NCBI GenBank assembly: GCA_029747585.1
Contig: JAPEVF010000045.1
Coordinates: forward strand, 1 to 64,000
From: Pleurotus djamor
Taxonomy: Eukaryota > Basidiomycota > Agaricomycetes > Agaricales > Pleurotaceae
DNA: 64,000 bases
Direction of reading: 5' to 3'
Shown: one piece after another, positions 22,529 through 43,728 of the stretch
Layout: each line of letters begins with the position of its first letter
How positions within the stretch are numbered: the stretch's first letter is position 1
Translations under genes and position numbers: made by a program
Notes under the pieces: generated by a model
Database searches by the model: none
Told to the model about the DNA's origin: nothing
The model's input: only the letters and a program-made list of their open reading frames with translations

Positions 22529-22835
22529 TTGTGGTCAGACGAGGTTGATGAAGAAGAAGCTTACTTTGATGGATATTTAACTCGGTGAAATCGCTGCAAA
22601 ACACCTGTTGCCGTCTGGACGACGCGTACAGGGTTGCTGAGTAAGATGAGTCGGCATGAAGTCGGGTTGCCCGACGGACAGGTTTCTGGGCCCCTTTCTA
22701 CTCACGTGCCAACAGGGGCTGCGACCATGAGTCATTTCGAGTCCAGACGTTACTTACAACACACAGTATGGCCAATCCAGCCCGCCATCATCCAATTCAT
22801 TTCTGCCTCTGGTCCCCTTGATTTCTAGCAACTCT
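22529..22835. promoter_or_regulatory. Bidirectional promoter region between SDR2 and SDR3
   Basis: The start codons of two divergently transcribed SDR paralogs are 307 bases apart, so both promoters must lie here or overlap. An AT-rich GATATTTAACT at about 22570 is a TATA-like candidate for SDR2. No other site could be assigned. Confidence 0.5.
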
Positions 22836-24198
22836 ATGCAGATAGCTCGTTATGCTCGCCCTTGCCTTCAACGATCAAGTCACCAGAGCAATCAGGTTCA
22901 AAATCGTGGCTTCTACACATTTCTGAAGGAGCAACTTGCGACCGTGCCCCCCGTCTGTACCAAGGACCTTTCAGGGAAAGTTGTCTTGGTCACCGGCGCG
23001 AACTCAGGCATTGGATATGAAACTGCGAAGCATTTTGCCTCGATGGGGGCGGAGAAAGTCATTCTGGGTTGTAGGAATAAAGCAAGGGGAGAAGATGCGG
23101 TTCGCCGTGAGTATTTTGTTCAAACTTGTGTCATACAGCTACCAGGCTTACCTCTTACGTTCACCTTCCCCAGGCCTGACTGTAGAGACAGGGCGGACCA
23201 ACGCTGAGCTTCAGCTGGTGGATCTAGCTAGCTTCACCTCGATACGGGCGTTTGTCGATCAGTTTGACTCTGAGAAACTGGACTTTCTCGTGTCTAACGC
23301 TGGTATTGTGACCGGAAAGTATAAGGAAACAGAGGATGGCTGGGAACAATCGTACGTCGCGTGAAAATCCTCGCCTTCGATGAAATTTTTGACCAAGGGG
23401 CTGTAGCCTGCAAGTGAACCACCTAGGCCCAGCTCTTCTCACCACGCTCCTTCTACCCAAACTCTACGCCGCTGCCTCTACTCAATCCACTTCTCCTAGA
23501 GTTGTGTTCGTGAGTAGTGATGCCCACAGAGATGCTGCTCTGCCCCGCAAGACGCTTGAGGCGTCTTCAGTGCTCCGCCACATTAGCAGTCGGGAGGGGT
23601 CGTTACCCTACAATCTAATCCACAAATACCGCTTAGCAAAACGTACGTTCGCTAGCTGAATTTACTTTACGAAAGACTGATCTGTCCTTTGCCCAGTAAT
23701 CAATGTCCTCTTCGCCAGGGCACTTTCAGCTCATCTTGCCCCACCTCCATCTTCACCCACGTCTCAACCTCCGATCGTCAATTCCGTCGATCCTGGTCTC
23801 TGCTACTCCGAGATGACGCGGGGTGCCACAGCATATCTTGTTTTCCGGATGGCTATGTCCGTGTTGGCTCGCACGGCGGAGGAAGGTGCCCGACAATTGA
23901 TATGGGCTAGTATCGGTTCTCCTGGTGCATCGACCGCACTTCCTAGTGACCCAAGCGATTTAGACGGGGAAGCGGCTCTGAGAGGAGCGTTCATCAGCTC
24001 GATGAAGATTCGTAAACCTGGCGGTTTGGCATCACGCGAGAAGGGAAGAGAGTTCGAACAGCTCCTTTGGGTAAGAGTAGCTTTCCGCTTCTAGCGCAAT
24101 CGCGTATTTACTCTTCATTTGCACAGGATGATACCTTGAAGATTTTGGCTGCGGTGGATGAGAGGGTGCCGTTGATTATCAAGGACTACTTATCTTGA
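22836..24198 (+). CDS. Short-chain dehydrogenase/reductase SDR3 with extended basic N-terminus
   Basis: Paralog of SDR1/2/4, 376 aa. Exons: 22836-23106, 23174-23351, 23407-23642, 23697-24070, 24127-24198. It keeps the full cofactor motif TGANSGIG, then VSNAGIV, catalytic YRLAK and [10 protein letters not shown]. The N-terminus differs: [20 protein letters not shown] replaces the MGNKS start of the others and adds about 20 residues rich in Arg, Gln and Ser with no acidic residue, which could be a mitochondrial presequence. The start is the first ATG of the frame. Confidence 0.85.
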
Positions 24199-24613
24199 CA
24201 ACTATTTTCGCTGTTAAGTTTCGTTTCGTGATGCATCAGCTACCTTGACCCCATCTCATAACTGTATCCCCAATTCAATACCCAGTCTAGACCATCGACT
24301 ACCGATAGCTCTCACCACCATCATATAGTGGCCCTTGTGACCCTTGAAGCTTTGAAGCTTGACGCGTGACGCCCGAAGGCGCAGCTTCATTTGAGCACGT
24401 CAAAAGCAAGATCAGCAGTAGGCGGACTCTTCAATCCGTTACATATTCCACGAGTAATTACTCAACATTTAAATGATACGACCAACTAACAATCTTTATA
24501 CGGTTACCATTACAAGCGACAGTAATCTCAGCATTATCGTTTCCGAGGAGTTTGTTGTAATTTTCTCTTTGCGTGCGCTCCGTTAGGGGGCCGCGCTGAT
24601 CATCGATCAGTCC
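24199..24613. other. Intergenic between convergent genes
   Basis: 3' flanks of SDR3 and small protein A. A short direct repeat of TTGAAGCTT is at about 24342-24360. No gene seen. Confidence 0.45.
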
Positions 24614-24910
24614 TTATGCATTATGCGAGAGTTCAGACGTTTGAAAAGCGCACCATGAGCAGAGCATCTGCCATCCTCTCCCCAATGCCTCTTGGACTTG
24701 CCGATAGAATCTACTGGCGGCCGTGTCGTTTGGGGGGACAGCGACATCAGCACCATTTGTGTTATTTCTCCCGCCAAGATTGTTGCAATCGATAGGACCG
24801 TAGTATTCATCTCCGTGGAATGTAACGTAGGAGATGCACATATTGTAGACGGTCCCGGACGCGTGTGACTGGGATTGCTCTGGTGCTGTCTTGTGTCGTG
24901 TAGATTCCAT
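24614..24910 (-). CDS. Small Gly-rich-motif protein A
   Basis: A 98-aa single-exon protein, not recognised as a known family. After a polar 20-residue start comes an alternating beta-like stretch (VYNMCISYVTF) and the motif GDEYYGPIDCNNLGGR at residues 33-48, then NNTNG. The rest is a predicted amphipathic helix (SRFYRQVQEALGRGWQML). The same module order is seen in protein C (28233) and at the C-terminus of the large proteins D, E and F. The frame is supported by this conservation rather than by length. Confidence 0.6.
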   Translation of the reverse strand: MESTRHKTAPEQSQSHASGTVYNMCISYVTFHGDEYYGPIDCNNLGGRNNTNGADVAVPPNDTAASRFYRQVQEALGRGWQMLCSWCAFQTSELSHNA

Positions 24911-25646
24911 GGGCTGAGGGTTGGGGGGAGCTAAGGGNAAAGCTGGGGAAGCCTGGGAATCGTGGAGGTGATGTTCTTATACCGAGGAAAAGAGATACAT
25001 ATGGAGCAGGTTCAGCCGCGTTACCTGCAAGGAGAACTCTCAGGGCCAGGGTCATATCTCTTTTGAACATCAATGGATGGGCCAAAAATCGCCTAAAGTA
25101 AGAGAGGAAGGGAAAGAGGAGGATCGAGGAACGAAGGCCAGTATTCATAAGGAAGAGGTCACGCGGTGGCGAAGGTCTAGAATATCATAAGAAGTATACT
25201 ATGGGCGGCGGCTGGGAGCACTTTGTTTAATAACAGACAGTCTAGCAGTGTCGAGTTTGAGTATCCCTTATCACGAAGTGGTCGGTTATGGTAGCCTTTT
25301 CTGTAGCAACGCGAGAGTTATTTATTTTCATAGCTTCTTTTGCGATGACCGTCACGTCCATAAGGAAGGGGTGCATCGGGAACAAGAGCAACGACAACCA
25401 CTCCTATCCCCCTGAACCGCGTTCAGGCGTCTCCAGCGCCTGCGTTCCTCTGTTTCTCATATCTCGCCGTCAGCCCGTTTGGGCATCTTCAGCACTTCCG
25501 CATGAGCCCTTCTGATTACCCAAGATTTATCTCTCGGCCATGCCTTGGGGAGCGTCGAGAGGTACATCTGCTCGCCGTGTGATCATCCACCAGTCGTCAC
25601 ATGTACTTGGTAACGGAAACTTGTTGCTCTGGGCAAGCTCTGGGGA
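24911..25646. other. Intergenic between small proteins A and B
   Basis: Includes a lone N at 24938 just upstream of gene A. Only unsupported frames. Nothing else recognised. Confidence 0.45.
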
Positions 25647-26081
25647 TCACGTTCGGCCATTCAAGAGTGACGCGTACTCATTGATGGTCTTTAGCACTTC
25701 GTGATAAGTATCAGGTACCACTGGCTTGACCTCTACAACAACCAAAGACTTACCTCGAACTCTAGGTTTTAAAATGTTCCATACCCGTTCCATCATGTCT
25801 TTTAAAGTGATTTCGGGAGCTTTCATCCTCATCCTCTTCTTCGTCTCCTCTTTATGGGACCCACGAGGCATGTACGTGGTAGCGTTGGCGTAAGTATTTC
25901 CCCTTCCCCCGACGTTCCCTCCCGAGATATCGCCGTGGTAGGTGTCGCCAGCATTCGAAGCGTTGATAATGGTGATGTTAAGATTGATCGCGGAAGCCTT
26001 GCAGTCAGGGACGATGATTATGATTAGAGGTAACGTCGCAGCCATTTGGAGGGAGTCGAAGCTGACTTTGAGAGAAGGCAA
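25647..26081 (-). CDS. Small Gly-rich-motif protein B
   Basis: A 144-aa single-exon protein of unknown family. A second ATG at residue 13 would give MAATLPLIIIIVPDC, a hydrophobic stretch that may be a signal or membrane segment. Next comes an alternating NLNITIIN strand and the motif GDTYHGDISGGNVGGR at residues 45-60, a version with Asp in place of the usual Pro. A basic linker (EETKKRMRMK) leads to a helix (LKDMMERVWNILK) and a further conserved-looking C-terminal part ending NEYASLLNGRT. It is the most divergent of the three small motif proteins. Confidence 0.5.
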   Translation of the reverse strand: MPSLKVSFDSLQMAATLPLIIIIVPDCKASAINLNITIINASNAGDTYHGDISGGNVGGRGNTYANATTYMPRGSHKEETKKRMRMKAPEITLKDMMERVWNILKPRVRGKSLVVVEVKPVVPDTYHEVLKTINEYASLLNGRT

Positions 26082-28232
26082 GGTGAAGGGTACTCAGGAT
26101 GAACCGATGAAGGCCCCCCGAGGACAAGATACCTGCCTATATCCCTCTTCCAACTTCGCGAAGCGCGCAAGCTGCAGCGGGCAGTCAGGAAATGAGAGAA
26201 CACATCTCATTGTGTGGCGGGTTCCAAACATAGCAAGCTAATGCATAGAACATCGTGCTGCTAACGTCGATCCCGACATCAAAGGATCAGCACATTAACA
26301 TAATTGACGCAAATCCTCCTCGGGCACGCATGGAGGAATTGTTATAATTATGGATAGCTTTCTTCCGCCCAAGCGGAATGAGGGGTACTCGAAGGCCGAC
26401 CGAACCTGGACGTCTGGACCCTTGACTTCTTGGAAGTAAATAATAATGTGAGCTAGTTCGACTGGTCACATGACATTGAGGTCCCGACAACGCGTGCATA
26501 ATCCAGTTATGATGCCTCGAGTGACGCTGTCCTTGAAACTTGATGTTTTCGTGCCTGAAGTCAAAGCTCGAGGGCTCGACTGAAGACGATGGGGCGAAAC
26601 GCTGAAGAAGATCAGCGCTTCGAGGGGATGTTTGCGACAGGCTTGTTCTTTGTCAACCCTCAGCCCATAATTGATTCCCGCATCAGTCGCTAATTATCCG
26701 CACCTCACAGTCAAGGCGAGGATCTATATGACATTCCGCTGGGATTCTAAACTCATGTGAAGCACCACAAAGCGCCTCAATGTCGAAGGCGCTAACCGTG
26801 CCACGACTCACCGTGTGTGTCCAGTTTCCTAACTGGCGACCTGTCAATATCTTCTCTCACTTCACGCACACAGGTCCCAGAACTCCACGGAATGTTCGCG
26901 CTAGTCTGTAATAGGTGTTGATCGCGAGGGACCACAACCTGCAGGACGTGACACCGCCGTCTAGCTGAGTCGTGCCTGCGAAAGCTTCACACGTTCTTAA
27001 CGCATTGATATGCGCATCAATCCAGCTTTGTCCCATAACAGCATCTACTGGAGGTTCGCACTCGTTACACACGCAATATCAAACTGGATGCAACGAGGCG
27101 GTTTCCTATTTTGTGTCTGATACAATACAGTCGATGCAGACGAGTGGGCAGTTGATCTGGACTTCTACGTGCGGCGGGCGGGCCTAAGATATGAAACGCT
27201 ACATGTTTTCAGCTCTCATGGCTCGAAGAAAAGTGGGCAGGCAGGTGTAGTTCGACACCATTCACCACCGTTGCGGACATAGGGGCGATAGGGGTGAGAG
27301 TCGAAGTCCCTTGGGAGCAGCTTAGAAACTCCAATGCTTCGGTCTCACACCTGTATACCCATCTTATTGTGCGAAGCGTTGAAGAACGTCGATGGATCGA
27401 ACGAGTCCCAAGTACATATATCATGCAAAATCAATTCTTCTACACAAATAGATGGGCAAGAAGTGGTGAGGGAGAAGAGGAAAAAGGTGAACGGGATGTC
27501 AAAGAAGTCCAACCGGTAGATCTCTCTATAGAGTATACGGAAGACGATACAACATGGGTTTATGCACATGATCCATGATCATGGATAGAACAGTCAATCT
27601 AGATGGAGTCATTGGTTTTGGAAAGGTGAAAGGTGGAGATAGATACGTAGACAGGAAGCGGGGGCCCAAAGCGACGAGTGGGAATGAAGATGATGTCAGG
27701 GCAAGGGTCTACCATAGGAAAGAAGGTGGAGGTATATAGCACTGCGCCGCAACCCTGCAATGTATGCCTATAACAGGCGTTGGACGATTATAGTAGCCTA
27801 TGTTCTCGGTGACACCGTGGGTCATTCGGGCGCTCGGACATCTTGTTCGTTAGCGTGCGGGAACGAGGCTTGCTTCCGTTGATCATGATTCATTTGATTC
27901 AGAAGAGGAAAAGGATACCTCCTTAACGGTTAACAAAGGACTTCGTCAACCTGGAGACGGGCGAAAGGTTTCGGGGAAAGAGTCTCTGGGAAGGGGAATG
28001 GGTACAAGGATGTTGGGTGAACTGTCGGGTGTATATCAAGTGCGGTGAGCTCGAGGACGCGGGATTTGTTTGAGTGATGCTATGTCTAGGTGAGGAGACT
28101 ATTTGGTGGGAGAGGGAAGCTTGAGAGCGAGATCGAGTTTGACCGGGACCAGTGACCAATGGTATTCTTATGTGTTCATGCCAATTCAAGGTGAGCTGCT
28201 CACGTCGCTCAGCTACACGTCCAGAGCAACGG
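26082..28232. other. Intergenic, about 2.1 kb
   Basis: No gene could be supported on either strand. Several 60-100 codon frames exist, none with splice logic, recognisable motifs or a paralog in this window. A frame at 27294-27578 is listed under rejected items. Confidence 0.4.
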
Positions 28233-28538
28233 TCAGCACGCGGAATCATCAACGAAAGTGGGAGGGCTTTTGATGTACAATATTCCAAGTGTATTCCACC
28301 ATCGTTGCAAGGTCTCCTTCACCTTACGGTAAATCCGTTCGATGAGAGACTCCGGAGCGATGCCAACGGCGGTACCATTTGCATTGTGCCTGCCGCCCAC
28401 ACACTCGCATTGTATGGGTCCGTAATACTCGTCGCCGTGGATGGTTGAGTACGAGATGATTGGATTGTAGACGGCGACATGTATACTTGAAGGAGATGGA
28501 GTTGGAGTCGTGGGCGGGGTAGTTGTGTGTTGTGACAT
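28233..28538 (-). CDS. Small Gly-rich-motif protein C
   Basis: A 101-aa single-exon protein closely parallel to protein A. A Thr/Pro/Ser-rich start precedes VYNPIISYSTI, the motif GDEYYGPIQCECVGGR (residues 35-50) and HNANG, then an amphipathic helix ERIYRKVKETLQRWWNTL. A TTTAAATA element (minus strand, about 28564-28571) lies about 30 bases upstream of the start codon and may be a TATA box. Function unknown. Confidence 0.6.
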   Translation of the reverse strand: MSQHTTTPPTTPTPSPSSIHVAVYNPIISYSTIHGDEYYGPIQCECVGGRHNANGTAVGIAPESLIERIYRKVKETLQRWWNTLGILYIKSPPTFVDDSAC

Positions 28539-29548
28539 GGAGCGAAGGGTATTATGCCTTGCTATTTAAAGGGATAGGGATGGGTGACTGGTCGAACAGG
28601 GCTGATGGTACGCCGGTGCATGAGGGACGCAGAGTTTGAAATAGTCACGGCCGTAGTAGAGTTATCCTGAAAACTCGAAAGGATTTCAGGGACTCTTGAG
28701 ATCCGTTTTGTTTATCTAAGTCAAGATAAGCTGAGCAGACGCGAGCCGGCCTTGACGGTTCGGCGAACGCACCTTGCTTTTGTTCACGATGAACGGTCCA
28801 AAATGATGGTGGGAGACTTAGCCCATACGAGTAGTACTAGATCATCTCTACTTTCTTGAGACAGGGCGTGAAAACTGATGTACGAGGATGGCGGGCTGGA
28901 GCGATACTTACTCTGGATTGCTGGGTCGGCTCAAATTGGCTATTGTTTGTTTCGGGTTATCTAGTTTCTTGAGAAAGGATTAACGTCTCCTGTTCGTACT
29001 TAGGATGTTTAAGTTTGTGCATAACACATATGTTTCTGGCCAAATCCCTGATACATATGGGAGCCAGGAAGAGCAAATTAGTCGCTCGAAATATCTACAT
29101 GAAAAAGGGTCGGCTTAACTCATTCGAGCTCGATATAGCTGTCTCCTTTTTAAAACAGCAATGAGGGTTTGATTCGAGCTCTTTTAAGGCGAATCAAGCC
29201 TATTCTGAGAGGATAACGTCCGTTCCAAGTCCATTCTGTCGGGCGCTAAAGGAAAGGAAAGGCCAAGGAAAGCGACTGGATCCAATAAAGCTGTACAACC
29301 GCGACGCTTAGTACCATGGAGGTTCGGCATGGCAGGAAAGGTCAGGGACTTGGGGGAATTGAGGACGGTGGCGACACACAAAGCCTTCCAAGAACGGCCG
29401 ACCAAGACGTAGACGGGAAACCAGACCCTGGGCGCTTGGAGAGACAGATATTCACACGCATATCCCCCAGATCTCACGGTCCCTCACAAGGATCATTGAA
29501 CATCATGATCCTGGACCATAACATCAACTCACAAACTCTAGTGTCACC
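28539..29548. other. Intergenic, about 1 kb
   Basis: No supported gene. Contains only short frames in low-information sequence. Confidence 0.45.
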
Positions 29549-31368
29549 ATGAACGACTACGACTCACTCGACCCATCTAGCTCAAGGCTATCCGAACGAT
29601 GTACGCGAGCGCTTGATACTCTTTTATGTCCATGCTCGACCAGCGCCATGACTGACGAAAACCATCCACCGCAGTCGACGCCGCAGACTCAGATATCACC
29701 CTCCGTTCGTGTGATGGCGTTCTTTTCAAAGTACATCGAATAAACTTGAAGATGCACTCGGACATCTTTGCTGATGCTGAGGACATTTCGTCGTCGTCGT
29801 CACTGGGGCCATCGTGAGTCGCTCAGAGTCATATTTACTCCCAAGATTCTCATGCTGTAGCACTGCCCTTTGTTCCATAGTATGCGGGATAGTCCTCCGT
29901 CATCAGCGCCCTCGCCCTCAGAATCATCTTCAACGTCGACCGAAACAATAAGGTCACCCCCCTCGCCGCCTTCTGGATCGAAACAGCATCCCGAACAAGT
30001 TCAACTTTCCGAGTCTTCAGAAGTCCTGAATGTCCTGTTACAATACATGTATCGTCAACCGCCACCGGACCTGTACGAGCTGGAATTTGAGGTGCTGGAG
30101 CAGGTAGCAGAAGCTGCGGACAAGTACAGAGTCTTCTTCGCCATTGATGCGTGCAAGCGCGCGATGAGGTCCGTTTGCTTCCCCCCCNAGCTCCTCGGCT
30201 ATCCTGTTGACCTATAATGTATTTCTTCAGAGACGCCATTCCTTCATATTCGTTTCAAGTCCTCAACTGGGCCGTCAAGCACAAGCATACGCAGCTCATC
30301 GATGAGGCTGCCGAATACACAATACACATGTCGTCGGACAACATGAAGGACGCGTTGGCGATGAGTATCCAAGGCGCTTGGGTGAGTACTTTACAGTCCA
30401 AATGTTCTGCTTTTCCCTCTTTCCCTTTTCCCCCTTCCCCTTTTCCCCCTCGCCTGCCGCCGATGGTACAGTGGCTTTGGCACTGATTGACGCTTCGGAG
30501 TCGTCACACGTGCAAGTGGGACTGCGTGGTCCTTTCGCGTTTGCTTCCCCTCTCATACACTTGCGCCAACCCCAATATCCTCTTCTGTCGCGCCCACCAT
30601 GGTTGCCATGTTTACTTCGCCTTGGGGCTTGACCTCCTCCGGCATGCGTCCACGTCGAAACCACGTGTGAAGCTCTGTCGCTTGCTACTGTCACTGTCTC
30701 TTCCGTCGTTTTCTACATCGCCCGACAGGTCTTCCTTCCACCGCCACGATCATAAACACTCGTCTATCCATCGGACGCGTCATCGCTCCCTGTGGCTGTG
30801 ACCATTCCTTTCATTCCCTCCCAGTTCAAACTTCAATTGCATCGTTCGCCTCTATTCCATTGGCTACCACTAACCACTCTCTCCCCGTTTCTAGATTACC
30901 TACCACAAGTACTTCCTCGACACTCTCAACGTTCAATACACGCGATACCTCCCAACAGCTTCCCACTGGAACTCAGCAACGCGTGATGTCGATCTTCCAT
31001 GTGAAGCTTGGACGCATGCGTATGCGCTTGTGGCTCATGCGCTTGGTGCGAGGCCGTGGATGATGTTGCCAGAGAGGAAGTGGGGGAATGCTGGTGCTTG
31101 GGCGGGCGATGGTGAAGGTGTTTCGGTGTTTGGTGCAGGCGGCGGTGGTGGAGGTGTTGGGGGAGGAGGAGCGTCGGATTCCTCTGTCAATGGTGGACCG
31201 TCAACGGGTGTTGATACGTTCATGGATGGAAACATTGTGCGGCTGTTTGCACAGCCGGAAGAGTATCTGAAATCGAAGTGTGGGGAATGTAGAGAGACGC
31301 TGGGGATGTGGAGGAAGGAGATGGAGAGAGAGGTCGAAAGAATACCAAGATTTAGTACGCTGATATAG
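29549..31368 (+). CDS. BTB/POZ domain protein
   Basis: A 367-aa protein with an N-terminal BTB/POZ dimerisation domain, a class often serving as CUL3 ubiquitin-ligase adaptors; mushrooms encode many. Exons: 29549-29600, 29675-29813, 29881-30168, 30231-30381, 30895-31368. BTB signature: DAADSDITLRSCDG then LFKVHRINLKMHS, and after a Ser/Pro insert VLNVLLQYMYRQ, then VAEAADKYRVFFAIDACK. The last exon gives ITYHKYFLDTL, CEAWTHAYALVAHALG, a Gly-rich loop, and ends CGECRETLGMWRKEMEREVE, as in family members. The fourth intron is 513 nt, far longer than the local norm; it was chosen because the flanking exons join in phase as IQGAW-ITYHKYF. A lone N at 30188 lies in the third intron. Confidence 0.72.
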
Positions 31369-31536
31369 AGTTCGCGTTGAATTCAGGTCGTTGCGATTAT
31401 TACGCTTCGTTGGTTTTTGCATATCGGAGATTTATGGAGGTCGCTGAATGCCAAAGCTGAGTGTTTTGGTCCCCTGTCTCTTCCATGAGCAAATGAATAA
31501 AACGGAAGTCCAAAACGATCTCGATCTGTATGTCAT

Positions 31537-31608
31537 TGCCTCGACCCCGGATCGAACGAGGGATCTTCGCATTACGAGTGCGACGCTTTACCACTGAGCC
31601 ACCGAGGC
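31537..31608 (-). tRNA. tRNA-Thr (anticodon CGT)
   Basis: On the minus strand GCCTCGG pairs with TCGAGGC with one G-T, discriminator A. D arm GCTCAGTGGTAAAGC, anticodon stem TCGCA/TGCGA with loop CTCGTAA (34-36 CGT), T arm with GTTCGATC. Length 72 nt, no intron. Folding by eye. Confidence 0.93.
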
Positions 31609-31690
31609 GTTAGGGTCCCTACGAATATTTGGCTGATACCCTTGCAAGTTTCCAAAATTGCGCGGTTTCAGATAACTCAAGCCTGAACCA

Positions 31691-31736
31691 GTACTATGGT
31701 TGAGGGGTAGTGCGTAAGGTGCCCTTCGTGCGTAAT
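31691..31736 (+). repeat. Left terminal inverted repeat of the MITE-like element
   Basis: Partner of 31984-32029 in inverted orientation. Confidence 0.78.
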
Positions 31737-31983
31737 CACCCGAAAAGCATACCTTCCTCCCAGTTTCTTGCCACAGAAAATTGATAGTAGCCTCCGATAA
31801 TGTCTCCCTTCGCCCTCCAGCTTTTATAATGGGCGTACGTTAGCTGGACGCTGAGTTGACTTTCGAGGAAGGTGTCACGGTGGCCGAGCAGCCGGTGCGG
31901 AGAGTGAAAGAAATTAGGGGTTTTTGCAGACATTCTGCTAGCGTGGGAGGATGGCTTCCAAAATTTGATGTGACATTGTGTGA

Positions 31984-32029
31984 CATTACGCACTAAGGGC
32001 ACCTTACGCACTACCCCTCAACCATAGTA
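31984..32029 (-). repeat. Right terminal inverted repeat of the MITE-like element
   Basis: Partner of 31691-31736 in inverted orientation. Confidence 0.78.
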
Positions 32030-32815
32030 CCTGAACTACGTAAACCCTCGACGCTCATCGGCGACCCCAAGTCATACATTGCGCGAGGGTATGATCACCC
32101 TGATTCCACGTCGAACAGTGGGTCCGCAGTCGATGAATCAATAGTCACTGATGCATCCAAAAAGATGATCTATCCGCAGAACCAGCTGTATTCGTGATGC
32201 TTGCGGATCAGGCTCATCGCTTTCTCGACTATATATCTTCAGCGCCCTGCTCCAAATACAGTGAATCGCCTCCTATCCTTTGCCAACGCCTATCAACCGA
32301 GGGCTCTTCCCAGCTGCGCATCATATGAATTGTGGGTTAACACATTGGTCAATCCTGTTGCTCTCCCAACCACCACCCAACCATTCCTATCTCAACATCA
32401 ACAACATACTAGTTATCAACGCCACTTACAGCCTCCTTATCCAAATTGTATCCAAAGATCATGGTCGTCGTGGAAGACCAACTCCTTCGATTTCCGCAAG
32501 GAGCTTGCAGGGAGGCTCGTGCACTGGATATCTGGATATCCCAGTCTTTGATGTATGATGCGTTCCTCAGCGGTCATCTGTTATCTGCCCGCGAAAAGTC
32601 CTTTCGATCACTTTCCAAGTCGTCCATTTCCCCGATATGGAGTCCCTATCTCAATTGATTGATTCAGAACTGCCCTTGACACCTCCCAATGATCTCCATC
32701 GACTGTCACCCTCCGCGTCGGTGAGTGACTCTGGAACATTTATAAGCACCGAAACCCATTATTGACCACTTCGTTACCTCCCTCCGTCCCCCCCCCCCGC
32801 CGTCTGTGACTGTGA
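32030..32815. other. Region upstream of large paralog D
   Basis: CTATATATC near 32230 is a possible TATA box. The interval to the D start codon may hold leader exons: a frame around 32650-32720 beginning MESLSQLIDSELPLTPP ends at a GTGAGT donor. No coding join to D was established because TGA directly precedes the D start codon. A C run is at about 32788. Confidence 0.35.
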
Positions 32816-34985
32816 ATGTCCTACCCGCCTCACTTCTTTCATAACGATGAGCCGATAGCGTTGTCCATATGCATGAAGCTTTTTCTGATGATAACTTCAA
32901 TGCGTAGGACAGTGGAAGAGCCATGCATCCCCTCGGTGGTTGATCGGACTGTACGTTTCCCTCTAGCCACCTTCATATGATCCTAATGGCCCTATAGTTC
33001 AATGTTGAACACCCTATCCCTTGCCGACTCGATACGCTGCGTTCGGAGAAGCTGCAGCCTATCCACGGCGCCTCAATCAACTCTAACCGACTCCTAGAGC
33101 CTACGAAACTTCTCCCCACCGCTGACGCACCCCTGCGCATCGATACTATTCTCGTCCTCCCTTCTCAGATCTCGGACCCACAGTTCATCTCCAAGATATC
33201 GAAAGGCCCCGATCTCTCGACGCGTTGCAGGAACTTACAACTTGACTTCACCAAGCGGTGCATCATCCTTGAAACTTTCACTCTCCACCGCTCTCAGACA
33301 ATGTCCCCGAGATCGCCGAAACTTAATGAAGACAGGGCATGGGTGTCTTTCTTTGAATCATTATCGTCGCTTCTCGCCACATTACCATGTCAGAAACTAT
33401 GTGAAGACCTCAGGACTGTCTTTGACAGCGGCATGAGGATCGTCGTCAGCGTCGATGCCCCCTCTAGGCAAGACGTTCAATCTCCATGTGTGTTTGATGC
33501 TTCTTTGGAGTTTGTCAAGAACCATACTGATCTTGGATTTTTTCATATTCACAATAGTTTGCGGCGTCTCCTCGTCTGACTACAAGTTCGATTGTCCATC
33601 CCACAGTTCTTCGTCACACTACTCGCTTTCTATCCAGCATTTGACACCATCCGCGTCGCTCTCACTCATTTCTAACCTCCGTTCATTACTCGCGAAATTG
33701 CCTCGGACGGCACTTCGCACCAGCCCCCCTCCTTTCCTTGACATTGCATTCCTTCGATGGCCGCTTTTATATCACCCCAAGCAGTCTTCTCTGTCGACGT
33801 CACGCTCGACCTCTCGGGTGTTCAAGCGACACATTCTAAAGCTTTCCGCACTCTTTGAGTTGCGATCTCCATCACCCACCCTATATCAGTCGTTTTCTAC
33901 TTCTCAACAATCTCTTCTCCCTCGACGTCTCAGTAATGAGACTCTGGAGCAACCCTCCAAACCGTCCTTTATCTCGGAAGCTATCCCTCCCGCCGTTGAA
34001 GGGATACCAACTGTCCAAGCGGGTTGGCTCACCGAGCCCCCACATCGCCCTCCTCATTCCACGTCCTCTGTACCTTTTCAATTTGTCACTCAATCGTCAC
34101 TTACCGCAAGCTTGGTCTTCGATATTCGGAGGGTATCCTATGCCCGCGACTCTATGGAACTCCAAACGTGGTTTCCTCGATCCCCAATTCTTCCGCCGTT
34201 GGATTCGACCGAAAGCAAGGTTATCAATACCAATACTTCACATGACGGCGTCATGAACTGTCTCTCAAAAAANTGGCTACATGCTACACATGCTTGATCT
34301 ACGTGAGCCCTCCACCAACGATTGGGATGAGGATCCTCCCTGGATCCGCAAACCTTCACCTCCTCCTTCTAGCTCTGCGACTCTCCTCGAAACGAAGTTT
34401 GCCCTCGGTCCAGCGTCCGGAAACAGTACCGACTGTGCCTTTCACACCGATCTTCAAGGTGCATACCGAGAATCTTCGACTTCCCTATCCTTCTCGTGCC
34501 TTTCGCCCGTCTTCAATAACACCAACAACACAACCCTTCGCGCGTCATGCGACCTTATCGGCCTCACACAGTCCTTCTACCCTGCTATTGATTTTCAACA
34601 TCTCGCCACCACTGCCCTTGATGATGCTGACAATACCCACTCAAATGATATCGGCACAAATACACATACCCGCGAATACGCGTATACCACCCATGAATCC
34701 GAATATACCAACGATAACTTATTCGAACCCGAAGAGTCTCGCTGCTTTATCCAGCGAAACACCCATAATAGTACATACCATATCCATTTTCATTATCACG
34801 GAGACAACTACAATGGTCCTATTCATGGTGGCATCATCGGCGGTCGCAGCAACTCTAACAGTACGCATTTGTCTCCGATGCATACGAGACTCCTAACTCC
34901 TTTCCCCCTAGTCATCAACCCGGTTTCGGACATCGAGACTATCCTACGATTGATTCGTAGCTACGGCAAGGAAGATCTCCCTTAA
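32816..34985 (+). CDS. Large tandem paralog D: HORMA-like N-terminus and C-terminal Gly-rich motif
   Basis: 666 aa from four exons: 32816-32950, 32998-33487, 33558-34860 (containing the N at 34273, treated as a spurious base) and 34912-34985. Exons 1 and 2 are 135 and 490 nt, identical in length to E. N-terminal helix SICMKLFLMITSMRRTVEE is followed by RTFNVEHPIPCRLD, PTADAPLRIDTILVLP, CIILETFTLH and a helix SLSSLLATLPCQKL; this order loosely recalls an ATG13-type HORMA domain. The middle is a long Ser/Pro/Thr-rich disordered region. Near the end TYHIHFHYH leads to the motif GDNYNGPIHGGIIGGR (34800-34847), an Asn/Ser patch and, after the last intron, SDIETILRLIRSYG. Function unknown. Reading the N literally would truncate the protein in mid-domain. 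Confidence 0.68.
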
Positions 34986-36342
34986 TATCACCCTCCACGA
35001 GAGCTGGCCTCAAGCTTAATGGCCTCTCGGGAACGCAGTCTATGGAATAAGGAGGCTGAAGTTCAGCCCGAGAAAGAGCCGTCGAGCCATCCACGGCTCT
35101 GGCACCTTAATAACACAGAGTATATCATCTTTCCAACCATTGAAGTTTCCCTTTTGTCTGTTCAGTGGCAATCTATCTACGTCCGCGATGGAAATACTTT
35201 AGATGGTCGAACTCGCTTCGTTTGCATGGTCTGATGGACCGCGTTTGTCAATTCCCCTTCAACGCTAAGAGGAACTCAGTAACACTTGTAAACTTGGGTT
35301 GATATTTCAAGTGCACGCTAGTCAACACTTCCAATCACGAAATGTTCAAGGCAAGGTGGAAGCCAGGTGGAAGACCAAAGAATGGTCGGGCGCTAATCTT
35401 AAATATAGCCTCGGACCGTTTGCGGACCGATAATCTTTCCATCTTCCAATTCAAACTTGGTTCAAACTTGGGTCCCTCGTTCTCCCATTTGGACTCTGCC
35501 AGACTTCCGCAGCTCACAATTGGCGTGTAAACCGCTCTCTTTGACCTTGAGCTTGAATAGTCTTAGCCTCGTGCTTGCTGAGTAATCTCCCGCCTTGTCC
35601 CGCTGGCTTTCCGGGCTGTTCAATCTTGTACTTGAAAAGGCGTACAGCTCAGCGAAAGTGCACCTAAGGCTTCACCTAGGTCAGTCAGCTATTAGTGAAG
35701 TCTCTTACTTTGAGTTGCTTACTGACCATGGCTAGCAGACCGACACTGTAACTTGATCTTCATGATAATTCCCGATGACATGTGTCTACCACGATCTTCT
35801 CGAACCGACCTTGACGTCTCCCAAATCTCGCTATGCCGCTTCGTAAGAGGGTCTGGGGAAAATGTACTGCTTGGGCTTACGCGAAGCATCTCGCATGCCG
35901 GCATGATCAATGCCACCCCGAGTTCTCCTCTTCATGATAGCAACAAACCCTGAATCACTGTCACCGCCCGCGCAAAAAANCTGACACTCTATCGAAAGAG
36001 TGCTCGAGGTTCGTCATCCAAATGTCCTCGAGGCCTCCCACCCCAAACATTCACTACTGGGGCATATCCCAGGAAATCAACCGTCTAATTTAATTCCAAC
36101 CCCTTCCCACATTTACACGCCTAAAGATAGCATTGAGTCATTTGACTTTTAGGTCCGCGTTGATTCAGCGTCTTTCATGACATCGTCGTGTTTGAGTTTC
36201 TGCGACCCTTTCCTCACAACTCCTTGTAAGATATCCATATGGCGTTAATGGATGGCTCGGTTGCGATGCGTTCCTCATAAGCACCGCATCCTACTTCTCG
36301 CCACTCCATTGCCTCCCTCTTCCCCTCCCTCGCCGGCTTTGA
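34986..36342. other. Intergenic between D and E, about 1.36 kb
   Basis: No gene seen. Contains a lone N at 35980 after an A run. The part from about 36200 corresponds to the leader region before E and may contain non-coding 5' exons. Confidence 0.4.
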
Positions 36343-38573
36343 ATGGCCAGTCCATCTCACTCTCCTCGCAAAGATGAAATGACCGCGCTGTCGGTTTGCT
36401 TGAAACTTCTTTTGATGATTACTGCGATGCGCAGGACGATGGAGGAAATTCATATCCCCGAGGTGGTTGATCGGACCGTGAGCTTTTTTTNCGTCCGTTT
36501 GGTATGAACCCAATGATCTCACCCCACAACTAGTTCAATGTTGAGCACCCCATACCTTGCCGACTGGATCGAATGCGCTCGGAGAAGCTGAAGTTTGTTC
36601 ACGGTTCTGCGACCAATACTACCCGCCTTATGGATCCTATGCAGCTACTCCCTACCGCCGATGAGCCACTCCGCATCGAAACTATCCTCATTCTTCCACC
36701 CCAGATCTCCGACCCACAATTTATCTGTAAGATACTGGAAGATCCTTCCTTATCAACATGCTACATGAACACGCGACTCGACTATAGCAAGCATTGTATT
36801 GTCCTGGAAACCTTCAATCTGCACCTCTCCCAGATCACCCCCTCAAAAGCGTTGAAGACTGATAAAGAGAAGGCTTGGGCGTCGTTCTTTCATTCGGTCT
36901 CGTCGCTTTTAGTCGCTTTGCCATCTCAAAAGCTTTTTGAAGGCCTCAAGGGGGTTCGGGATGATGGTATGCAAGTCATCGTTAGCGTCGGGGCAACCTC
37001 TAGGGACGATATCCTCCCTCTTGGTACGTTGTTAGTCTCCTTAGTACTTCCTTCAATTACCGACTCAGATCTTTCGTGCTCGACAGCTAGTGGTTCTTCC
37101 GTTTCCAACTACATGTTTGATTCTCCACCCCACAGCTCTTCCTCAAATTACACGCTCTCTATTCAACACCTGATTCCGTCGGCCTCGCTCTCACTTATCC
37201 GTAATCTCCGCTCTCTTCTCAGGAAATTACCTTCTACAACCGCTCGGACCAGTCCCCCTCCTTGTCTTGACATTTCCTTCCTTCAATGGCCTCTTTTATA
37301 TCACCCCACACCAGCTTCTCCGCCACCAAGCGGCCCTTCTTCTCGGGGGTTCAAGCTTCCCATCCTGAAGCTTCCCACTCTCTTTGAATCACGTCCTCCA
37401 TCACCCACCCCATCCCAATCATCTCTCCCTGCTCAACAAGAACAACGCTTTCTCCGCAGACGTCCCAGTACGGATACCTTGAAACAAGCATTCAAAGCTC
37501 GCTTTGGTCCAGGGACGATCCATCCTGCTGTTGAAGAGATCCCTCCCGTTCGTACAGACCGTCTCACGAATACTCAGCATCAATACCATCATTCCATGTC
37601 CTCCGTGTCAGCGTCAATCGTCACTCGTTCATCGCTCGACTTTCATGCCTCGAGAGGCTCGACTCTTTCGGCAAGTCTGGTTTTCGACATCAGGAGGACC
37701 TCGTTTGATTCTTCTGGTCGGTTCTCTGTGGAATCCCATTCGTGGCTTACGCGCTCTTCGATATCTTCCCTTCCTCCAAGGTTGTCTTCGTCGACAGAAG
37801 CCGTTGGCATTAATACATCCCACCTCGATATCATGAGTTGTCTCTCTAAGAATGGGTACATGCTTCATATGCAAAGTTCGGACGAGCCTGTTGCGACCGA
37901 TTGGGACGAGAATCCCCCGTGGGTCTCCCAGGATTCATCTTCGCACTCAACTTCCATACCCCACTTCAAACATGACTCCGCCTTCATCCGTCCATCAATG
38001 TCTTCTGAAAATAGCCAGCTTTCCTTTCACACCGCTCTGGGTGAGCTGTATCGGGAGTCCACGATTTCCTTAGCTTCATCTTACCTTGCGCCGACCTCTA
38101 ATGACATCAACACGAACCCTCGCGCATCGTGTTCCACCATCAGCCTGACACAGTCTTTCTATTCTGCTATTCTGTTTGAAGATACTACAACTGGCTTCTA
38201 CAATACCAACGATATCCGCTCCAGCGATACCAATATAAATCCAAATACCCACGAACACATTTATCTCAACGATGAATCTGAACGCAATGGCCTTTCCGAC
38301 CCCGATGCCCGTCACTTAATCCAGCAACGTACAAGTAATCATACATATCATATCCATCTACATTATTACGGAGATACCTACCATGGCCCTATTCATGGCG
38401 GTATTGTCGGCGGTCGCAGAAACTCGAATGGTAAGAGTTGGTTTCGTTCATATGTATCAGGCTCCTAACTCCTCTTATCCTCCTAGTTATCGCTCCTCCA
38501 CCGACCTTGGTCTCGGATATCGAGACTATTCTACGGGTAATTCGCAGCTACGGTCAAGCTGAGACTGCCNTGA
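36343..38573 (+). CDS. Large tandem paralog E: HORMA-like N-terminus and C-terminal Gly-rich motif
   Basis: 684 aa; exons 36343-36477, 36534-37023, 37087-38430, 38487-38573. The start MASPSHSPRKDEMTALSV was set by alignment to D and by an in-frame TGA directly upstream in both. Conserved blocks: CLKLLLMITAMRRTMEE, FNVEHPIPCRLD, TADEPLRIETILILPP, HCIVLETFNLHL, FFHSVSSLLVALPSQKL, then a YTLSIQHL block and about 330 disordered residues with repeated short blocks shared with D and F (for example LVFDIRRTSFD and IRPSMSS). The Gly-rich motif GDTYHGPIHGGIVGGR is at 38370-38417. The last exon encodes SDIETILRVIRSYGQ. The N at 38570 hides the stop: without it the frame ends TGA at 38571-38573; with it translation would run on 130 bases. 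Introns 1 and 2 align with those of D. Confidence 0.7.
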
Positions 38574-39254
38574 TACCCTACGCATGTATTCGCCTCGTCT
38601 ACCGTTATTCCTGTTGCTTGGGCTCTGCTTCTCATAAACCCAGTGTTTCCATCGCATATGCCCACTATCCTAAGTACCTCCACCTCTTATATCATTTGTT
38701 TTCATAGCTTGGTAAGCCATTGTACGTTGTTTAGTTGACTTCATTAATACCAGCCGGTTCCGCAGCCCTGCTGGAGTCAGTCGGCAACCATTTGTCGTGT
38801 CTTTGCTAATGACTGCCTATAAAACTTCCTGAACGGGACCCATCTTGTCTTCGAACCAAGGCTCGGTCGCCTTCTACGCGCTCAAACTTATTATTTCAGC
38901 TCAAACTACTGTTTGCTTTTCCTACCCCCAATCTTGGGACACAATTATTTCATCACTCATTGACCGCCTCGACGAGCTTATCTGGAACACGCGAAGAGTA
39001 ACAGCTATCCCGCATCCGATCCAGCCCAGGGTCATTTCATCAAAGTTTGACAATGAACTCCTCTCTCACACGCTGATCCCCAATGAGTGAGTGCCTCCGC
39101 GTTCACCGCCTTACCCGCCAAGCTGATGTCTGAATCATTCTCATCATTCAGAGAGGTAACCCCATATGTCCCCGACGCGGTTCGGCTGTGGAGAATGTTC
39201 ATGGTTCATGTTGATCCCTTCCCTCCCCCACCCTCCGTCACTGAATGGTCCCGA
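38574..39254. other. Region upstream of F
   Basis: Holds the TATA box described separately and a possible leader exon. A frame from 38845 ending at a GTGAGT donor (39087) joins in phase to a frame that runs into F (NEEVTPYVPDAVRLW), but it has no start codon, so it is treated as leader. An in-frame ATG at 39195 could add 20 residues to F. Confidence 0.4.
38818..38825 (+). promoter_or_regulatory. TATA box, probable promoter of paralog F
   Basis: TATAAAAC, about 430 bases before the F start codon, implying a long or spliced leader. Confidence 0.4.
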
Positions 39255-41427
39255 ATGTTCCCCGCTAGACCTCAGCCACCCGTGAAGGATGGGCTCCTGG
39301 TTCTCTCTGTCTGTGTCAAGCTCTTCTTGATGGTTTCCCTCGCACGGCGGACAGTGGAAGAACCTTGCGTTCCGGGGCTGGTAGATCAATCCGTGAGTCA
39401 TCTGCTTGCTGGCATTTTCTCTCCATTCGCTCTGAAGTCGCAATTTACATCCTTTTAGTTCAATATTGAAAGCCGTGTTCCGTGTCGGTTGGATAAAACT
39501 CGCTCGATGAAGCTCAATCTCATTCCGGATCGCGTCATTCGTTCTACCAAGGTCATCGAACCCATGCAGCTCATTCCTACCGCTGACGCGCCGCTCTGCA
39601 TCGAGACTGTTCTTGTGCTGCCCGAGAGGGTGTTCTCCGATGAGTTTATGCGCGAAGTTCTTCATGACCCATTCCTATGGCAGCTATACATGGACACAAG
39701 GCTTGACGCCATGAAGCGTTGTATTGTGCTTGAAACTCACACCCTCCGCGTCAATCATGCTGTCCTTCCGCGATCAACCCGAAGAACCAAGGATAAGGCA
39801 TGGGCGTCCTGGTTCCGTTCGGTTTCATCGTTTCTATCTTCCTTTCCATCTAGCAAGGAGTTCGACGCGCTGAAGGATCTTTGCGGAAGAGGGCTACGAG
39901 TTCTAGTTACCGTCGGCGCGAGCTCCAGAGACGATGTTCTGCCTCTAGGTGAGTTCCTTCGTGTCCAATTTGTCACGTCGTCAAACCTCTTACTCATCTT
40001 TTCTTCCAACTGACGTGACCTCCATATCCGAGCACATCTTTCCCTGTCCACCCCATCACCTATCCTCACACTACTCCCTGGTTATCCAACGTCTCACAGC
40101 ATCTACCTTGCACACACTCATTCACATCCTATGTTCTATACTCTCCAGAATCCCACCGACACGCCTCTCTGAACGCCCTCCTTTCCTCGAAATTTCATTC
40201 CGTCGTTGGCCCCTTGTATACTACCCACAACGCTGGGCTCCGTCTCGACGAACGCCACTGTATGACCGTGTATTTCAGCTCCCTCAATTGAAATTCCCCA
40301 ATCCGTTTGTATCAAATTCAGGCTCGCCCACTTCGTCCCAGGAATCCCTCTTTACCTATCAAATTATGCAATTTCGTCGACAACTGGCCGCAGCAAACCT
40401 TCGACAAGCCTTCACACTGTCCTTCGGCGCAAGGAAGAGAAGTCTGAATATCAAACCAAACATCGAACTCACGCCAGTCATCGATGGCATACCCCAACAC
40501 ACCGACTTCGCCAAATATCCCTCGGATATAACAAACTCGTCTATGGAGGTCTTTGCTTCTGCGAGCTCGTCTTTTACACCGAGTTTAGTCTTTGATATCC
40601 AGAGATCATCCTATGATTTCACTGGTCGCACCTATCTTGGAGCGGTTTCGGTATTGATGTCCACGTCCACTCCATCTTCGATCCCATCAACCCCTCGAAG
40701 GCTATCTGAGATATCTTTTAGAACTTATAATGTCAACATGTACCACAATTCCTCTCCATCCGCTTCAAATGGAGGTTCTCGCGCACCATCTCCACTCCAG
40801 GGTGCTACCCCTATGTTCAAAGGGAGGTCTGCTCTCATCCGACCATCCATGTCCTCCGACGTCACACAGCTCACATATTACACTACGCCCGAATATCCGC
40901 ACCAAGGATCTACATCAACGACGTCTGTATTATCATCTGGGTATTTAACGCCAGCCAGCACGGCCAACGCTCGCATCTCGCATTCTGCCATCAGCATTGC
41001 GCAATCATTCCATTCTGCCGTTGATAATCAAGGCCTTCCCGTCAGTGGTTTCCGTGTCGACGCTCACGATGCTTCCAATACCCATGACCACATATATACC
41101 AACAACAATCATGCCACACAATCTATACTAAACACCGAAGCGTCGCGCCACTCTACTGACCAACCAAACCATGTCCCGAACACCTATCATATCCACCTAC
41201 ACCTGTACGGAGATACTTACCACGGCCCTATTTATGGAGGTAACATCGGCGGACGCAGTAACTCTTATGGTACGTCGGATTTTCCCCTTGTCCGGCTATG
41301 TCTTATACCTCTCCTTGTAGTCCGTGATTCCTCCCCTTCCTTGGTCTCAGACATCGACACCATCGTTCAGATTATTCGCAGTTATGGACAAACGTCCGCG
41401 GAACACCCTGTCTCTCCAGCCTCATGA
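39255..41427 (+). CDS. Large tandem paralog F: HORMA-like N-terminus, C-terminal Gly-rich motif, defective splice acceptor
   Basis: About 664 aa if spliced like its sisters: exons 39255-39392, 39459-39948 (490 nt, same as D and E), 40010-41269, 41321-41427. Conserved blocks: SVCVKLFLMVSLARRTVEE, FNIESRVPCRLD, TADAPLCIETVLVLP, CIVLETHTLRV, WFRSVSSFLSSFPSS, YSLVIQRL, a Ser/Pro-rich middle with LVFDIQRSSYD, then YHIHLHLY and the motif GDTYHGPIYGGNIGGR (41209-41256), and VSDIDTIVQIIRSYGQ. The acceptor of intron 2 should be AG at 40008-40009 but reads AA. The only nearby AG (40031-40032) is in frame only with a weak donor at 39936. F may therefore be mis-spliced, recently damaged or locally mis-sequenced; the two flanking exons are otherwise open. 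Confidence 0.6.
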
Positions 41428-42254
41428 ACTGCGAGCTTGAACCCAGCTCAGCCGTGTACTACCTCTACACTCGTTTGTCGTTATTTGCAATCCGTAGCCG
41501 GCTTTTTATAGCGTCAGTGAATTATTTATTTCGTAGGCTTGCATCAAATCATCCTTGATGGATTCGCTTCATATTTCTCAATGAGGAGACCCACGAGTAT
41601 GAATGCACCCAGAAACGTTGGCCTATCGGCTCCAGGTCCCAGCCTCTAGCTGCCTTTCTGAGTCTCCATCATAAGGCGAATGCATGATCTTGTTCACTCT
41701 AACACTCTGAGGGAGTCTGAGAATCATGACTGTTGGTGACAGTTGAGTCCATTGATTCGAGGTTCCAGCATGAGTCTATAATGCCAAGACATAAGAAAAT
41801 GGTCGCACCTGGCTCAGTTGACTTCCTGTACGAAGAGAGCTCGACAATTGCGGATGGACTTGCTTTGTTCGATGCCCTGGATTACACAGGGGACCGCCCC
41901 TCCACCCCTGGTATCAGGGTACCTAGTTCGACTGATCGGTAACCGGCTTGCCTCTTTGACGCGTTTTTATTGCATCCGTTCCTCCTCACAACTTTTTCTG
42001 TCAAGCGTATGGGCATTGGCCAAGCACGCAACTGGCTCCAGGAGAACCAAGTTTGTATGTGCGAATGGGAACGGCCTAAGCCCCGTACCCAGGATCACTT
42101 CTGCCTCCCACCTCGTCTTCTCAGCGCGGAACTGCGTTTGTACGCTGCGAGGTGATACGGTGCGTAATTTGCCTTTTGACTTTGATAACGCCAACCCTCA
42201 CACGTATCTAACAGGGCAACAAATCAGGTGCTAGCCTCATCGCAGTACTGAGTA
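41428..42254. other. Intergenic between F and the DUF6699 gene
   Basis: No supported gene; only short frames. Confidence 0.45.
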
Positions 42255-43070: not shown

Positions 43071-43728
43071 CGGGCTCCTAACCTCACACGTCTATGTTTC
43101 CATTTCAACAGCCACTAAAGATCAATTTGTAACTCGTACCTTTGTATCCCCTAGACGCTCACCTATTCCCTGGAATTCGAAGACAAATGTAGCCTCACAA
43201 CCATATGCCGCCTCATGCTCCCCACGTTGCTTGCACTCGAGGGTTGCCTCGATTGAGCCTGTCGAAATGCTCGCTTAGATCGGAGATCTCGCACTCTAGT
43301 TGATCAGGTCGAGGTAGCTATCGTTTTTCACCTCGTGCTTTTCACCAGGACCAAGAGAAGTGGTGCGGTGGATTCGATAGGAGCGCCCCTTAGAGGAAGG
43401 TCATGCGTTGTGCTGTCACGTCGTGTCACGCTTTGCCTGTTCCGCTGCGCTCACTTGATGCTCACCCGCCCGCTTCTTGGAGGTTGCCCTCGACCGTCGA
43501 CGTTCTCGCAGCAGCGAACATCTTTGCGTTGCCATGGCTCTTTGTACACACGGCGTCTCGACTCCCGTAAGCCTCTAACATGAGTCCACCAAATCCCGAA
43601 TTGACTGGAAAATTACTCAGTTCAAATCAACCTGTGCTGCGTGACGCAGTCAAGTCAATATTAGACAGTCCTCTCCTGTTTCTCGATGAATATAAAAGCC
43701 CCTCTTGAGTAGCTCTCCCCGCAAACCA
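43071..43728. other. Intergenic, upstream region of SDR4
   Basis: No gene seen. Contains the TATA box listed separately. Confidence 0.5.
43691..43698 (+). promoter_or_regulatory. TATA box of SDR4
   Basis: TATAAAAG, 30 bases before the ATG at 43729, so the leader must be very short or initiation occurs just ahead of the start codon. Confidence 0.6.

What the first reader, a model, noticed from the sequence alone, without database searches (positions are those of the whole stretch)
24614..41427. A shared Gly-rich motif links three tiny proteins and three large tandem paralogs
Seen directly: GD-x-Y-x-G-P-I-x-G-G-x-x-G-G-R occurs once in each of six proteins: A (24767-24814), B (25902-25949), C (28389-28436), D (34800-34847), E (38370-38417) and F (41209-41256). 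In all but the divergent B it is preceded by an alternating polar/hydrophobic strand (YHIHLHYY in E, NPIISYST in C) and followed by an Asn-rich patch. No other protein in the window has it. One motif carried both by small single-module proteins and at the end of large multidomain proteins in the same neighbourhood is the arrangement known for fungal amyloid or RHIM-like signalling pairs such as HET-s/NWD2. That this motif is such a homotypic module is inference; I do not recognise it as any named family.
Basis: partly seen in the sequence, partly recalled or inferred. Interest (0 to 1): 0.85.

Follow-up and report, generated by a model that had tools for sequence, protein, structure and literature searches.

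The report
Shared sticky-looking tag on ATG13-like proteins
In what is almost certainly the pink oyster mushroom, one short glycine-rich tag is found on many small proteins, some of them apparently membrane-bound, and at the tail end of three side-by-side relatives of the autophagy protein ATG13, which suggests (but does not prove) a self-assembly tag that calls an autophagy-type scaffold to membranes.

Summary
The genome is taken to be Pleurotus djamor. A 17-copy profile finds exactly these six in the window and 57 sites on 30 contigs in the loci fetched (haplotype copies counted), so this is a genome-wide module. It is under strong purifying selection (pooled omega 0.06), while disordered regions upstream of it in E and F evolve at 0.35-0.43. 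D, E and F are divergent tandem paralogs of the autophagy scaffold ATG13 (below Pfam's cut-off, but profile-profile E 6.7e-8 and a first intron placed as in the genome's own ATG13 genes), with the module at the C-terminus. Some small carriers end in an amphipathic helix (A, C) or a transmembrane-like segment (nine sites elsewhere); others have neither. No module was seen upstream of 12 of 27 NACHT places, so the HET-s/NWD2 arrangement proper was not found. Best reading: a homotypic, possibly amyloid-like module linking membrane-associated small proteins to an ATG13-type HORMA scaffold. Homology and selection are shown; self-assembly is inferred. Occurrence in other species could not be shown.

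The parts
24614..24910 (-). Small protein A (98 aa from an ATG): module plus amphipathic C-terminal helix
   Evidence: helix moment 0.70; 49% identical to C in the aligned part
24767..24814 (-). Module copy A
   Evidence: 59.6 bits with the 17-copy HMM
25647..26045 (-). Small protein B (132 aa from an ATG), the most divergent copy
25902..25949 (-). Module copy B
   Evidence: 49.9 bits
28233..28538 (-). Small protein C (101 aa from an ATG): module plus Trp/Arg-rich amphipathic helix
   Evidence: helix moment 0.79
28389..28436 (-). Module copy C
   Evidence: 63.4 bits
32816..34985 (+). Gene D: ATG13-like paralog with C-terminal module; its frame changes near an N at 34273, the C847 copy reads through in one frame there
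   Evidence: Pfam ATG13 22.0 bits on exons 1+2
34800..34847 (+). Module copy D
   Evidence: 56.2 bits
36343..38569 (+). Gene E: ATG13-like paralog (about 690 aa); model exons 36343-36477, 36534-37023, 37069-38430, 38487-38569 or beyond (N at 38570)
   Evidence: gene model; deposited protein ONZ45_g12298 of the other haplotype; Pfam ATG13 22.0 bits
38370..38417 (+). Module copy E
   Evidence: 59.9 bits
39195..41427 (+). Gene F: ATG13-like paralog; start codon and second intron uncertain
   Evidence: match to D exon 2 at E 7.3e-37; no Pfam hit of its own
41209..41256 (+). Module copy F
   Evidence: 57.5 bits

Best explanation
The motif is a short module of about 35 residues (hydrophobic or alternating strand, then GDxYxGxIxGGxxGGRxNxN) of a multi-copy family in this Pleurotus genome. 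It is kept by strong purifying selection in two kinds of carrier: small proteins, some of whose C-termini look membrane-active (amphipathic helix) or membrane-anchored (one hydrophobic segment), and three tandem divergent ATG13-like proteins that carry it at the C-terminal end of a long disordered tail. Shown: the recurrence, the selection, the ATG13 kinship. Predicted from hydropathy only: the membrane-type tails. Inferred: the module is unstructured alone and assembles with other copies of itself (beta-arch or amyloid-like stack), so that small membrane-associated proteins gather the ATG13-like scaffolds on a membrane and start an autophagy-initiation-like or cell-death response, without an NLR.
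For: Six copies in the window, 0 in 60 shuffles; HMM gap 49.9 to 4.9 bits; 20 of 20 further genome sites, picked from the hit tables, match the profile; 57 sites on 30 contigs. Selection: 30 codons in 10 allele-like pairs, 26 synonymous and 6 non-synonymous changes, omega 0.06; disordered regions omega 0.35 (E) and 0.43 (F), HORMA-exon 0.21-0.34. ATG13 kinship: the only Pfam family found for D/E/F, in 4 of 6 exon-2 copies at 13.8-20.7 bits, and 22.0 bits for spliced E and D, collinear from profile position 6-7; profile-profile probability 94.6%, E 6.7e-8, with this genome's own ATG13, 0 of 100 column shuffles reach the score; inferred phase-0 intron directly before FN(V/I/L) in D, E, F, in ATG13 (C746, C1028) and in a further paralog (C974). 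Tails: A, C and C1113 helix moments 0.70-0.79 and four carriers with KD 1.9-2.5, five more sites KD 1.75-2.37. AF2 gives the module no structure as a monomer (pLDDT 53), which fits a motif that folds only on assembly but proves nothing.
Against: No assembly or amyloid data. No match to RHIM, HET-s or any named motif in Pfam, NCBIfam or PDB sequences. Of ten small carriers checked for tails, B is intermediate and C545 and C289 have neither type, and E's own N-terminal part reaches a moment of 0.69, so the helix figures for A and C are weak evidence. HORMA fold not recovered: AF2 pLDDT 45.7, no Foldseek hit at E 0.001; the D/E/F-only profile finds no Atg13 chain in the PDB; a genome search with the Pfam ATG13 family listed five places, none of them D, E or F. 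F has no Pfam hit and no clear acceptor for its second intron. D's disordered part has omega 0.18, so the contrast with the module is seen in E and F only. No carrier outside P. djamor was found, and A-C have no long allele in the assembly.
Confidence: 0.42

Rival explanations
1. The module is a short linear docking motif: both small proteins and ATG13-like proteins bind the same third partner (for instance a kinase, coat or Atg17/Atg11-type scaffold). It does not stick to itself.
For: Short, no structure alone, strongly conserved at a few positions (six invariant columns in 17 copies); ATG13 tails hold, by recall, several short binding motifs.
Against: More than 50 sites in one assembly, haplotype copies counted, many in clusters of small genes with no other domain recognised, are easier to see as an assembly tag; the Gly/Asn pattern with alternating strands is of beta-stack type (inference).
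Confidence: 0.27
2. True HET-s/NWD2-type amyloid signalling: NLRs in this genome carry a diverged copy that the profile misses, and A, B, C or the membrane-type proteins are the executioners.
For: Agaricomycete NLRs carry amyloid-like motifs (PMC9815663, sections read); membrane-type tails on some small carriers.
Against: 0 of 12 NACHT upstream stretches has it (12 of 27 places); no contig overlap; no HeLo-type domain in the ORFs scanned.
Confidence: 0.1
3. The module is a small structural piece in a lineage-specific gene family without signalling role; D, E, F picked it up by exon shuffling.
For: An intron follows the module in D, E, F; F and the other-haplotype copy of E share ungapped DNA identity of 82% over 94 bases across it.
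Against: In E and F it is conserved more strongly than the sequence before it; it occurs with quite different tails.
Confidence: 0.14
4. Chance low-complexity similarity or decaying gene copies.
For: D has a frame change at an N; some genome sites have stops in the aligned stretch.
Against: omega 0.06 in the module, 0.21-0.34 in the HORMA exon; 0 in 60 shuffles.
Confidence: 0.03

Closest known systems
ATG13 (Pfam PF10033), HORMA-domain scaffold of the Atg1 autophagy-initiation complex (role recalled)
   Same: Collinear profile match, profile-profile match to the genome's own ATG13, same inferred phase-0 intron before FN(L/V/I), N-terminal part of that kind plus a long Ser/Thr/Pro-rich tail.
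   Different: Below Pfam's cut-off; the true ATG13 genes are elsewhere (C746/C1028) and show no module in the fetched stretches, C746 including 2.5 kb further downstream (best 9.3 bits, on the other strand); evolves faster (omega 0.21-0.34 against 0.04).
Fungal amyloid signalling pairs (HET-s/NWD2, HRAM, sigma, PP; recalled, and PMC9815663)
   Same: One short Gly/Asn-rich motif in small proteins and at the end of large neighbours in a cluster; membrane-type tails on some small ones.
   Different: No NLR and no HeLo domain found, motif C-terminal on the large partner, dozens of sites per genome, no amyloid data.
Agaricomycete NLR05/08/22/29/44 amyloid-like motif group (PMC9815663)
   Same: Same class of fungi, dozens of copies per strain.
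   Different: Those sit in NLR N-termini; the logos are figures and could not be read here, so identity or difference of sequence is untested.

Membership tests
ATG13 | Pfam ATG13 profile over its curated cut-off (25 bits) | tested here: not met
   22.0 bits for spliced E and D, none for F; 13.8-20.7 bits for 4 of 6 exon-2 copies; not listed in the genome search with the family
ATG13 | Homology to the genome's own ATG13 beyond chance | tested here: met
   hhalign 94.6%, E 6.7e-8; 0 of 100 column shuffles; shared inferred intron position and phase
ATG13 | HORMA fold | tested here: inconclusive
   AF2 pLDDT 45.7 from a 7-row alignment; no fold match
ATG13 | Binding to Atg1 and Atg17 or Atg101 | not testable with these tools
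   none
HET-s/NWD2-type amyloid signalling | Same motif in small proteins and in neighbouring large proteins | tested here: met
HET-s/NWD2-type amyloid signalling | NLR carrying the motif at its N-terminus | tested here: not met
   0 of 12 NACHT upstream stretches, 12 of 27 places; no shared contig
HET-s/NWD2-type amyloid signalling | HeLo-type pore-forming domain on the effector | tested here: not met
   No Pfam family in A and B, one chance hit (Lambda_CIII, 0.032) in C; none in 75 of 150 listed ORFs at 20 other motif loci
HET-s/NWD2-type amyloid signalling | Amyloid formation and cross-seeding | not testable with these tools
   none
Named motif families in Pfam, NCBIfam or solved structures (RHIM and others) | Profile match of the module | tested here: not met
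   Pfam 0 of 17 copies at E 1; NCBIfam one chance hit at 0.14; PDB sequences best E 1.7
Agaricomycete NLR05/08/22/29/44 motifs | Match to the published motif profile | not tested
   Logos are in figures and supplements, not available here

The most novel reading that the evidence does not exclude
An NLR-free prion-like switch into autophagy: small membrane-anchored or membrane-active proteins polymerise through this module and cross-nucleate the same module on ATG13-like HORMA paralogs, building an alternative autophagy-initiation platform used in defence or in self/nonself recognition of a dikaryotic mushroom.
Probability: 0.18. Interest if true: 0.87.

Novelty: new variant of a known kind. 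Interest (0 to 1): 0.62.

Why it matters
Fungal amyloid signalling is known to link NLRs to cell-killing domains. A motif family shared between membrane-type small proteins and ATG13-like scaffolds would tie the same logic directly to autophagy initiation, and would give basidiomycetes, where effector-side motifs seem less frequent than NLR-side ones (PMC9815663, section read), a large new set of candidates. It also documents tandem, selected paralogs of a core autophagy scaffold; three searches of the paper library (Atg13 with HORMA and basidiomycete; HORMA with fungal, incompatibility, autophagy and amyloid; Atg13 with HORMA domain, paralog and fungi) listed no paper whose title or abstract start reports this. 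Most subscription papers, and preprints, are not in that library.

Tried and rejected
Kinase partner: the motif gene on C47/C302 lies about 1 kb upstream of a strong protein kinase hit, but the kinase reads as a separate PKA-type gene (the PKA label is my reading of its sequence, not a family call), so I take it for an accidental neighbour. NLR partner: not found in the 12 NACHT stretches read. Haplotype divergence as a recognition signature: F is 88% identical between haplotypes; of seven other pairs compared, six aligned, with main stretches of 92.6-98.8% and shorter ones of 69.8-92.2%, so F is low but not clearly exceptional. HORMA by structure: one model and one fold search, uninformative. 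The protein collection searched with F gave nothing at E 1; with the small carriers and with E's N-terminal part one protein each, both P. djamor's own. A motif-only relative would probably fall under the E-value limit of a 5.8-billion-sequence collection, so this is not evidence of absence. AF2 of the module as a monomer: no structure.
Full report
Where it is. The window is contig C807 of a 55.9-Mb, 1413-contig assembly. I therefore take the genome to be that mushroom. C847 carries counterparts of D, E and F (96, 93 and 88% at DNA level over the stretches holding them) and behaves as the other haplotype. The stretch holding A, B and C (window 23000 to 29494) has no long counterpart in the assembly, only patches of at most about 145 bases; the C847 match begins at 29495. 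Either A-C are present on one haplotype only or the other copy is unassembled.

Observation. Only D, E and F fit the written pattern; A, B and C, on the minus strand, fit a looser one. The looser pattern is absent from 60 shuffles of the window. An HMM of 17 copies separates the six (49.9 to 63.4 bits) from everything else in the window (at most 4.9 bits). Six of the 17 training copies are the window's own, so this is separation, not independent detection. Twenty further genome sites, none used in training but picked from the hit tables of single-protein searches, all scored 18.8 to 39.6 bits (20 of 20).

Genome-wide family. Single-protein searches and the profile give 57 distinct sites of 17 bits or more on 30 contigs among the loci fetched, haplotype copies counted. 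Many are clustered (C544, C564, C1064, C718, C739). Some have stops in the aligned stretch, so not every site need be a working gene. In 17 aligned copies six columns are invariant (G16 D17 G21 I23 G29 G30), and R31 and N33 nearly so. Neither Pfam (0 of 17) nor NCBIfam (one chance hit at 0.14) nor PDB sequences (best E 1.7) know the motif.

Selection. In 30 codons around the motif, over ten allele-like pairs, there are 26 synonymous and 6 non-synonymous differences, omega 0.06. Two of the ten pairs (C545/C1250 and C718/C1064) may be paralogs rather than alleles, and two pairs have no difference at all. In E and F the disordered region has omega 0.35 and 0.43 and the module region 0.09 and 0.02. 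D has too few differences to say (module 0 changes; its disordered part 0.18). This is the strongest evidence that the module itself does something.

What D, E and F are. Exon 2 of D matches Pfam ATG13 weakly; of the six exon-2 copies of both haplotypes four match it (13.8 to 20.7 bits) and nothing else, while the window's E and F have no hit. With exon 1 spliced on, E rises from no hit to 22.0 bits and D from 19.7 to 22.0, aligned from profile position 6 or 7 onward; F still has none. All are below Pfam's cut-off of 25, and a genome search with the family lists five other places but not D, E or F: ATG13 on C746 (101.9 bits) and C1028 (92.0), a paralog on C974 (59.9) and two weak ones. A profile-profile comparison of D/E/F with the three stronger ones gives 94.6% and E 6.7e-8; in my own run the score was 48.5 against a maximum of 25.5 in 100 column shuffles. 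The first intron, inferred from the sequence, is phase 0 and lies directly before the FN(V/I/L) start of exon 2 in D, E, F, in C746, C1028 and C974. The deposited model of the other-haplotype E uses the same first intron and the same intron after the module, but a different second acceptor and a different C-terminal end. Against: the D/E/F-only profile finds no Atg13 chain in the PDB, whereas a profile that includes one real ATG13 does (4yk8, E 0.0016), which is partly built in; AlphaFold2 with seven rows gave pLDDT 45.7, and Foldseek found no match at E 0.001. I therefore call them divergent ATG13-like paralogs, HORMA by homology, and not ATG13. A search with D's exon 2 found no further paralog apart from the two sets on C807 and C847 and two chance-level hits. 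The module was not seen in the fetched stretches of the true ATG13 genes or of C974, including 2.5 and 2 kb further downstream on C746 and C974 (best 9.3 bits, wrong strand).

What the small carriers are. A and C are 49% identical in the aligned part and have, after the module, a strongly amphipathic helix (moments 0.70 and 0.79; a relative on C1113 0.78); B has a weaker one (0.53). As a caution, E's N-terminal part reaches 0.69 as well. Four others (C1064 three copies, C718:134013) are about 190-220 aa ORFs with the module early and a hydrophobic segment near the C-terminus (KD 1.9 to 2.5). C545 and C289 have neither (all). A similar hydrophobic tail lies close downstream of the module at five more sites (1.75 to 2.37); in four of these it is a separate alignment and its splicing to the module is inferred. 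Some of the nine sites are near-identical pairs. D and F themselves end, after the module, in a short helix-like tail (SDIETILRLIRSYG in D). A Pfam scan of 75 of the 150 listed ORFs (95 aa or longer) at 20 other motif loci gave five families only (a cation ATPase part, CRAL/TRIO, F-box-like, a 2OG-Fe(II) oxygenase and Wbp11), with no effector domain.

Mechanism. The anatomy is a shared module on small proteins, some of membrane type, and on scaffold proteins of autophagy type. The step from there to homotypic assembly rests on analogy: Gly/Asn-rich pattern with alternating strands, many copies per genome, no monomer structure predicted. I put 0.42 on an assembly module that brings the ATG13-like scaffold to membranes and 0.27 on a docking motif for a shared third partner.

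Compared with what is known. PMC9815663 (passages, sections 20 and 28) reports 16 amyloid-like motifs in short NLR N-termini, a group of them (05/08/22/29/44) in Agaricomycetes, and says that effector-side copies are seemingly less frequent there. Its logos are figures and could not be compared. In this genome 27 NACHT places are listed (23 over the cut-off); I read about 1.5 kb upstream of 12 of them and found no module (best 3.8 bits); an N-terminus further off or a diverged copy would have been missed. Of the other papers I saw search listings only (one search listed none). HET-s, NWD2, RHIM and the roles of Atg13 are from recall.

Noticed in passing
window 31692-32030: MITE-like element of about 338 bases with about 46-base terminal inverted repeats; seven copies of 93-99% identity listed elsewhere, absent from the C847 haplotype just upstream of D.
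   Followed up: partly
window 42252-43067: DUF6699 gene (E 4.7e-24) between F and the next gene; the C847 locus has no match for window 41579-43364, so the gene looks present or absent between haplotypes.
   Followed up: partly
window 21902-22534 and about 43364-43994: Short-chain dehydrogenase sequence at 21902-22534, and what reads as another on the far side of the cluster (my reading of the C847 copy); stretches near 23007-23362 match C847:12775-13126 at 71-80%, suggesting paralogs that flank the cluster.
   Followed up: no
L019 (C974:14420-14917): A second ATG13 paralog (59.9 bits) distinct from the ATG13 on C746/C1028, no module seen in the fetched stretches.
   Followed up: partly
window 34273 and 38570: Single N bases: one lies at a frame change inside D, the other at the end of E; 12 single Ns in the window.
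   Followed up: no
L041 (C289), residues before the module: A GGTFNDIRGHQHNYD stretch precedes the module; from recall it resembles the N-terminal motif of many Agaricomycete NACHT proteins (not tested).
   Followed up: no
L081, L083-L085, L088-L090, L092 (C604, C739, C718, C52, C497): A subfamily with a conserved end of the form ETC or TCK after the module that looks like a splice donor, so a second exon probably holds the tail (my reading).
   Followed up: no
window 18590-20194 (-), 57243-58970 (+), 61711-63471 (-): F-box-like proteins on both sides of the cluster, only the second over Pfam's cut-off.
   Followed up: no
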